In this document: piece after piece, positions 3,123 through 4,832 of the stretch
Layout of the letters: each line of letters opens with the position of its first letter
How positions within the stretch are numbered: position 1 is the first letter of the stretch
Assembly: GCA_021825785.1 (NCBI GenBank)
Contig: JAKAGP010000083.1
Location: 1 to 7,205 of the forward strand
DNA length: 7,205 bases
From: Nitrospirota bacterium
GTDB lineage: Bacteria > Nitrospirota > Thermodesulfovibrionia > Thermodesulfovibrionales > JdFR-88
Direction: 5' to 3'
Notes under the pieces: generated by a model
Seen by the model: only the letters and a program-made list of their open reading frames with translations
What the model was told of the DNA's origin: nothing
Databases searched by the model: none
Program-made: the position numbers and the translations under genes

Positions 3123-4832
<1,710 letters not shown>

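What the first reader, a model, noticed from the sequence alone, without database searches (positions are those of the whole stretch)
4644..4655. Both L1 nickel-ligand cysteines of a [NiFe]-hydrogenase are encoded by UGA
The large-subunit frame is continuous from the ATG at 4832 to 3123 except for two UGA codons, at 60 and 63. They sit exactly where RxCGxC has its cysteines, and family similarity is strong on both sides. Two random stops would be very unlikely to hit just these codons. Known [NiFeSe] enzymes have one selenocysteine, at the first L2 cysteine. Here selenium would occupy a terminal and a bridging Ni-Fe ligand while L2 stays Cys-Cys. I do not recall a characterised enzyme of this kind, but cannot check the literature.
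Basis: partly seen in the sequence, partly recalled or inferred. Interest (0 to 1): 0.95.

Follow-up and report, generated by a model that had tools for sequence, protein, structure and literature searches.

The report
Hydrogenase with two selenium nickel ligands
A nickel-iron hydrogenase gene in uncultured anaerobic bacteria has the stop codon UGA at two neighbouring metal-binding positions, and the same arrangement recurs in many genomes of several phyla, so it very probably makes an enzyme that holds its nickel with two selenocysteines, one of them bridging nickel and iron, a site not found described in the literature searched.

Summary
Confirmed. Window 3123-4832(-) is an intact group-1 [NiFe]-hydrogenase large subunit (best solved relative 3myr, 746 bits) whose only internal stops, UGA at codons 60 and 63, replace both L1 cysteines; L2 stays Cys-Cys. 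It is not decay: of 295 Nitrospirota genomes sampled, 47 have UGA at 60+63 (UGVU), 20 at 63 only (CGVU), none at 60 only. selA passes its cut-off in 51 of 54 and 43 of 45 genomes with the trait; the best tRNA-Sec hit has anticodon UCA in 72 of 73 genomes read, the exception being the window's own 91%-complete assembly. A hairpin 23/32 nt after the UGAs meets bacterial SECIS constraints, covaries in its main class, and goes with a codon constraint that is much weaker in Cys homologs; fold energy of the region is not unusual in UGVU genes. There are no protein data. I read it as a new, widespread [NiFeSe] type with a bridging selenolate, often plus a terminal one; I found no description in the papers and NCBIfam models searched. 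Its benefit is unknown.

The parts
3123..4832 (-). [NiFe]-hydrogenase large subunit, 569 codons, two in-frame UGA
4653..4655 (-). UGA codon 60: first L1 cysteine position (terminal Ni ligand; role recalled from known structures)
4644..4646 (-). UGA codon 63: second L1 cysteine position (Ni-Fe bridging ligand; role recalled from known structures)
4610..4626 (-). SECIS-like hairpin CAGCUC-CGUGA-GAGCUG; loop begins 23 nt after UGA63 and 32 nt after UGA60
3180..3191 (-). L2 motif CMAC (codons 548-551), both ligands encoded as TGC
4836..5933 (-). hydrogenase small subunit with twin-arginine-type signal (RRSGVSRREF); fourth proximal-cluster ligand position is Asn
2440..3102 (-). b-type cytochrome subunit (TIGR02125 over cut-off)
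1937..2449 (-). hydrogenase maturation protease, HyaD/HybD type
1728..1964 (-). HypC/HupF maturation chaperone

Best explanation
The gene encodes a periplasmic, membrane-anchored group-1 [NiFe] hydrogenase in which both L1 ligands are selenocysteine. SelB with Sec-tRNA-Sec(UCA) decodes UGA60 and UGA63, helped by one SECIS hairpin just downstream that lies within the usual distance of both codons. After HypC-assisted assembly and protease cleavage behind the L2 histidine, nickel would be held by Sec60 (terminal), Sec63 (bridging to Fe), Cys548 (terminal) and Cys551 (bridging). Shown: codon positions, conservation, co-occurring Sec machinery, a hairpin that covaries in its main class, synonymous constraint. 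Inferred: actual Sec insertion, ligand geometry, location, one hairpin serving both codons. Not known: the catalytic benefit; a guess is tuning of nickel redox chemistry or repair after oxidation.
For: UGA at the same two ligand codons in 47 of 295 sampled Nitrospirota genomes and at codon 63 in 20 more; among these 67 none at 60 alone and none elsewhere before L2. 120 of 120 pattern contigs are this hydrogenase, 78 UGVU and 42 CGVU. selA over cut-off in 51 of 54 genomes of the order with the trait and in 43 of 45 genomes titled to other phyla. Best tRNA-Sec hit read: UCA in 42 of 43 genomes of the order (25 of 26 UGVU genomes; the exception is the window's own) and in 30 of 30 of other phyla. 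Hairpin, UCCGUG class: 362 of 378 cells paired in 63 distinct sequences, covariation 0.298 against a shuffled mean of 0.087 (0 of 300 reach it) and at most 0.042 slid. Codon 72 is GTG in 102 of 103 UGVU and 47 of 55 CGVU genes (expected 0.31, 0.30; Cys/Cys 14 of 27, expected 0.32); codon 65 is ACG in 98 of 103 UGVU genes (expected 0.24).
Against: No protein or expression data. In the window's own genome (91% complete) no tRNA-Sec(UCA) was found; selD was not searched. selA is also over cut-off in 41 of 47 relatives without the trait, so in that order it is no contrast; 2 trait genomes of the order and 1 of the other phyla show no selA. Folding energy of the 51 nt after codon 63 is not lower than synonymous shuffles in UGVU genes (mean z 0.12; CGVU -0.99; Cys/Cys -0.28). 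At the window's register at least 5 of 6 pairs form in 59 of 107 UGVU, 25 of 58 CGVU and 4 of 42 Cys/Cys sequences; if a one-base-bulged register is allowed too, 97, 33 and 21, so that looser fit discriminates poorly. The UCGGUG class (31 UGVU loci) shows no covariation.
Confidence: 0.92

Rival explanations
1. UGA is read as cysteine by a tRNA-Sec-shaped tRNA-Cys (selC* type), so the enzyme is an ordinary four-cysteine hydrogenase with odd codons.
For: The own genome's only RF01852 match over the gathering score is such a tRNA with anticodon GCA and U73; a review (PMC7609411, passages) reports selC* tRNA-Cys in Nitrospirae and says some of this type carry UCA.
Against: All 9 tRNAs of this kind that were read here have GCA, which does not pair with UGA by the usual rules; tRNA-Sec(UCA) is the best hit in 25 of 26 UGVU genomes of the order whose best hit was read, among them the same-genus genome G002; Cys/Cys homologs use TGC or TGT.
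Confidence: 0.04
2. Gene decay, or sequencing or assembly error.
For: The database holds the window's protein, and its nearest relative, only as 498-residue forms that start after the UGAs (P0003, P0004). Two of the 120 pattern loci (L095, L158) have further stops downstream.
Against: Same two codons in 47 of 295 sampled Nitrospirota genomes, frames otherwise open up to L2 in the 67 genes read, intact operon, synonymous constraint around the codons.
Confidence: 0.01
3. The UGAs act mainly as a selenium-dependent switch: termination is the usual outcome and full-length enzyme is minor, a Cys paralog doing the work.
For: Four genomes carry a UGA-type copy and a copy without internal stops: G051 and G156 (second copy read as Cys/Cys) and G578 and G652 (second copy not read; no stops inside).
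Against: The other genomes with the trait show only this copy, or fragments of it, at the thresholds used.
Confidence: 0.02
4. UGA is reassigned to a standard amino acid throughout these genomes.
For: None found.
Against: UGA also ends this very gene and a number of its homologs; the other genes of the operon have no in-frame UGA; SelA and tRNA-Sec(UCA) are present in relatives.
Confidence: 0.01

Closest known systems
[NiFeSe] hydrogenase HysAB (Desulfovibrio, Desulfomicrobium; NCBIfam NF045518; PDB 5jsk, 1cc1)
   Same: [NiFe]-hydrogenase large subunit in which a nickel cysteine ligand is replaced by Sec.
   Different: There the one Sec replaces the first L2 cysteine (recalled); here L2 is Cys-Cys and UGA replaces one or both L1 cysteines. 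Score 407.5 against a cut-off of 780.
Group-1 [NiFe] hydrogenases with Cys/Cys L1 (A. vinosum 3myr, E. coli Hyd-1, and 70-77% identical homologs, one of which bears the source name 'hydrogenase, group If')
   Same: Family, L2, operon partners; nearest Cys/Cys proteins 77% identical.
   Different: L1 is UGVU or CGVU instead of CGVC, with a downstream hairpin and codon constraint.
Engineered Cys-to-Sec variants of E. coli Hyd-1 and Hyd-2
   Same: Each single nickel cysteine was replaced by Sec in the laboratory (PMC11212049, PMC13111528, passages).
   Different: Man-made, one Sec at a time; here natural, and often two at once. A review says H2 oxidation by the Hyd-1 variants fell whatever the position (PMC9961374, passages).
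F420-dependent and methylviologen-reducing [NiFeSe] hydrogenases (FrhA, MvhA/VhuU)
   Same: Hydrogenase alpha-subunit selenoproteins, motif UxxC, in a 2026 catalogue (PMC13188914, passages).
   Different: One Sec per alpha subunit there; such enzymes match this protein only weakly.

Membership tests
Group-1 [NiFe] hydrogenase | Large subunit matching PF00374 over its full length | tested here: met
   796.8 bits, positions 1-508 of 508
Group-1 [NiFe] hydrogenase | L2 motif DPCxxCxxH followed by a C-terminal extension for an endopeptidase | tested here: met
   DPCMACAVH then 15 residues; HyaD/HybD-type protease in the operon
Group-1 [NiFe] hydrogenase | L1 motif RxCGxC with two cysteine codons | tested here: not met
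   Both are TGA
Group-1 [NiFe] hydrogenase | Small subunit with twin-arginine signal and b-type cytochrome partner | tested here: met
   (signal by eye)
[NiFeSe] hydrogenase HysA | Sec at the first L2 cysteine position (recalled) | tested here: not met
   Codon 548 is TGC
[NiFeSe] hydrogenase HysA | NCBIfam NF045518 over cut-off | tested here: not met
   407.5 of 780 bits
Bacterial selenoprotein | In-frame UGA at a position that is Cys in homologs | tested here: met
Bacterial selenoprotein | Downstream hairpin: upper stem 4-16 bp, loop 3-9 nt, G in first two loop positions, loop 16-37 nt from UGA, MFE at most -7.5 kcal/mol (constraints as in PMC13188914, passages) | tested here: met
   6 bp, CGUGA, 23 and 32 nt; hairpin alone -7.4 kcal/mol. 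The 48 nt after each UGA fold at or below -7.5 in 107 of 107 UGVU sequences, but so do 40 (codon 60) and 41 (codon 63) of 42 Cys/Cys sequences
Bacterial selenoprotein | selA, selB and tRNA-Sec(UCA) in the same genome | tested here: inconclusive
   selA and selB found; tRNA-Sec(UCA) not found in the 91% complete assembly but present in same-genus genomes
Bacterial selenoprotein | Selenium in the protein | not testable with these tools
   needs mass spectrometry

The most novel reading that the evidence does not exclude
A widespread natural class of [NiFe] hydrogenases carries selenium as a Ni-Fe bridging ligand (CGVU), and often also as a second, terminal ligand (UGVU), with two Sec residues three codons apart inserted from one SECIS hairpin. 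In the genes that were read, the first L1 position was never UGA without the second, which suggests an ordered requirement.
Probability: 0.88. Interest if true: 0.93.

Novelty: new variant of a known kind. Interest (0 to 1): 0.88.

Why it matters
Known [NiFeSe] hydrogenases have selenium at one terminal, proton-relaying ligand, and accounts of why selenium helps are built on that position. A natural bridging selenolate, alone or with a terminal one, would be a new inorganic active site with close Cys/Cys homologs for comparison, and would show that nature uses positions so far known to me only from engineering. It also shows mis-annotation: the database copy of the window's protein lacks its first 71 residues.

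Tried and rejected
Decay, assembly error and genome-wide UGA reassignment were considered and rejected (see rivals). A hairpin around UGA63 (GAAC/GUUC) looked like a second SECIS in the window, but its 3' arm is GUGC or GUCC in other UGVU genes, so I do not claim it; the strong fixation of codon 65 (ACG) and codon 59 (ATA, 97 of 102) in UGVU genes remains unexplained. Fold energy against synonymous shuffles gave no signal in UGVU genes. Asp or Asn at the small subunit's proximal-cluster ligand is commoner in UGVU loci, but no link to the Sec state was seen once relatedness was allowed for (6 independent pairs, too few to reach significance). The direction of Cys/Sec changes cannot be told from the tree, whose root is not inferred (24 changes). 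A plasmid search found only homologs under 60% identity. ARAGORN on L042 overturned my first reading as tRNA-Sec. Structure prediction was not run, because homology to solved structures already fixes the positions. Paper searches returned nothing because the phrases were too strict.

Full report
Observation. Window 3123-4832(-) encodes a complete [NiFe]-hydrogenase large subunit (PF00374; best solved relative A. vinosum 3myr, 745.7 bits). Its frame contains two TGA codons before the terminal TGA: codon 60 (4655-4653) and codon 63 (4646-4644), which align with both cysteines of the L1 motif RICGVC. L2 is DPCMAC with TGC codons. The operon also holds a small subunit, a b-type cytochrome, a maturation protease and HypC.

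Recurrence. Among the own genome and 100 relatives of the same order, 77 of 101 have a homolog at E <= 1e-60; 46 genomes carry two TGA and 8 carry one. I read all 54: the 46 are UGVU, the 8 are CGVU. In a sample of 295 genomes of the phylum, which overlaps the first set, 107 have a homolog at E <= 1e-150; 47 are UGVU and 20 CGVU, all 67 read. In 301 Chloroflexota genomes 28 match at that threshold; 2 carry UGVU and 1 CGVU, the last on a contig end that does not reach L2. Among the genes read, UGA at codon 60 alone was not seen, nor a UGA elsewhere before L2; the rows reported without internal stops were read only in part. All 120 are this hydrogenase by an upstream RxEGH or a downstream L2 motif in the same frame: 78 UGVU and 42 CGVU. 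Of 101 of these loci with a long enough match, the record titles place 48 in Nitrospirota, 30 in Chloroflexota, 10 in Thermodesulfobacteriota, 3 in Myxococcota, 2 in Spirochaetota, 1 in Pseudomonadota and 1 in Rokuibacteriota; 6 have no phylum. These are mostly metagenome bins, and single bins may be misassigned. Two of the 120 (L095, L158) have further stops downstream.

Machinery. The own genome has selB (365.7 bits, cut-off 242.25) and selA (601.2, cut-off 267.9); selD was not searched. selA is over its cut-off in 51 of the 54 genomes of the order with the trait (none in G066 and G078; a fragment below cut-off in G086), but also in 41 of the 47 without it, so in this order it is no contrast. 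Of the 46 loci listed whose titles name another phylum I gave 45: selA is over the cut-off in 43, a weak piece in one, absent in one. The own genome's only tRNA-Sec family match over the gathering score (62.4 bits) turned out to have anticodon GCA and U73. This fits the selC* tRNA-Cys that a review reports from Nitrospirae (PMC7609411, passages). A pattern search of the own genome for a tRNA-Sec like those of its relatives gave nothing; the assembly is 91% complete. Among own + 100 relatives, 92 of 101 genomes have a match over the cut-off, some of which are surely other tRNAs. I read the best hit of 43 genomes: 42 are tRNA-Sec(UCA), 25 of them in UGVU genomes, one being the same-genus genome G002 with a 92% identical hydrogenase; the 43rd is the window's own. 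Eight second hits that I picked from the many listed are all tRNA-Cys(GCA). In the 45 genomes of other phyla 38 have a match over the cut-off; the best hits of 30 were read, and 30 of 30 are tRNA-Sec(UCA).

The RNA element. After UGA63 the window has CAGCUC-CGUGA-GAGCUG: 6-bp stem, 5-nt loop with GU, loop starting 23 nt after UGA63 and 32 nt after UGA60. A 2026 review gives for bacterial SECIS a stem of 4-16 bp, a loop of 3-9 nt, G in the first two loop positions and a spacing of 16-37 nt (PMC13188914, passages); one hairpin therefore fits both codons. Across 63 distinct sequences of the UCCGUG class the codon-70 and codon-74 triplets are exact complements in 53 (AGC/GCU 29, UGC/GCA 14, GCC/GGC 5, GCU/AGC 5), 362 of 378 cells pair, and covariation is 0.298 against a mean of 0.087 for shuffles and at most 0.042 for slid versions. 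Related sequences inflate such scores, but the triplets change the amino acids (Ser-Ala, Cys-Ala, Ala-Gly, Ala-Ser) and keep the pairing. Hairpins that meet the stem, loop and spacing rules after codon 63 with E <= -5 kcal/mol occur in 66 of 107 UGVU, 55 of 58 CGVU and 14 of 42 Cys/Cys sequences. Codon choice agrees: codon 72 is GTG in 102 of 103 UGVU and 47 of 55 CGVU (expected 0.31 and 0.30) and 14 of 27 Cys/Cys (expected 0.32); codon 65 ACG in 98 of 103 and codon 59 ATA in 97 of 102 mark UGVU only. Against: minimum free energy of the region is no lower than synonymous shuffles in UGVU genes; the UCGGUG class (31 UGVU loci) shows no covariation; a register that allows a bulge fits 97 of 107 UGVU but also 21 of 42 Cys/Cys sequences.

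Evolution. On a FastTree tree of 176 proteins with the two residues masked, Sec/Sec, Cys/Sec and Cys/Cys interleave (24 changes; starred branches force at least 17 for Sec/Sec). Cys/Cys proteins 77% identical to the window's exist. Four genomes hold a UGA-type copy beside a copy without internal stops: G051 and G156, where the second copy was read as Cys/Cys, and G578 and G652, where it was not read.

What is known. In the passages seen of a 2026 catalogue of prokaryotic selenoproteins, the hydrogenase subunits listed are FrhA, MvhA/VhuA/VhuU and FrhD/MvhD/VhuD types, UxxC or CxxU (PMC13188914). Papers were searched (open-licence PMC only; two searches returned nothing). Passages of PMC9312934, PMC9469722, PMC1794560, PMC8318568, PMC5322559, PMC5736913, PMC4959059 and PMC9961374 were seen; none of these passages mentions selenocysteine at L1 of a natural hydrogenase. 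Sec at each nickel ligand was engineered one at a time in E. coli Hyd-1 and Hyd-2 (PMC11212049 and PMC13111528, passages; the 2021 original is not held). No NCBIfam large-subunit model passes its cut-off, and the database copy of the window's protein is cut to 498 residues. Ligand roles of the four cysteines are recalled from known structures.

Verdict. Sec at both L1 positions is very likely. It is a new variant of [NiFeSe] hydrogenase, not a member of the HysA family, whose Sec position it does not share. The reason for selenium there is open.

Noticed in passing
window 5733-5747 (-), small subunit residues DCCGN: The fourth proximal [4Fe-4S] ligand position is Asn in the window; among 78 UGVU loci with a readable small subunit it is Asp in 34, Asn in 31 and Cys in 13 (CGVU: 13 Cys, 4 Asp; Cys/Cys: 8 Cys, 1 Asp). 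No link to the Sec state was seen beyond relatedness.
   Followed up: partly
L042:1501-1596 (G000:C6:41833-41924) and L328-L335: tRNA-Sec-shaped tRNA-Cys(GCA), selC* type, in the own genome and in 8 of 8 second hits picked from relatives; its function here is unknown.
   Followed up: partly
G051, G578, G652, G156: Genomes with a UGA-type copy and a second copy without internal stops (read as Cys/Cys in G051 and G156): candidates for selenium-controlled switching.
   Followed up: no
window 4656-4658 (codon 59) and 4638-4640 (codon 65): Codon 59 is ATA in 97 of 102 and codon 65 is ACG in 98 of 103 UGVU genes, a preference not shown by CGVU or Cys/Cys genes: an unexplained nucleotide constraint tied to the first UGA.
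   Followed up: partly
L095, L158: UGVU loci with further in-frame stops downstream, possible frameshift or decay.
   Followed up: no
window 6048-7205 (-) and 3-1262 (-): Phosphoglucose isomerase gene (cut by the window end) upstream of the operon; the protein at 3-1262 has no Pfam match.
   Followed up: no
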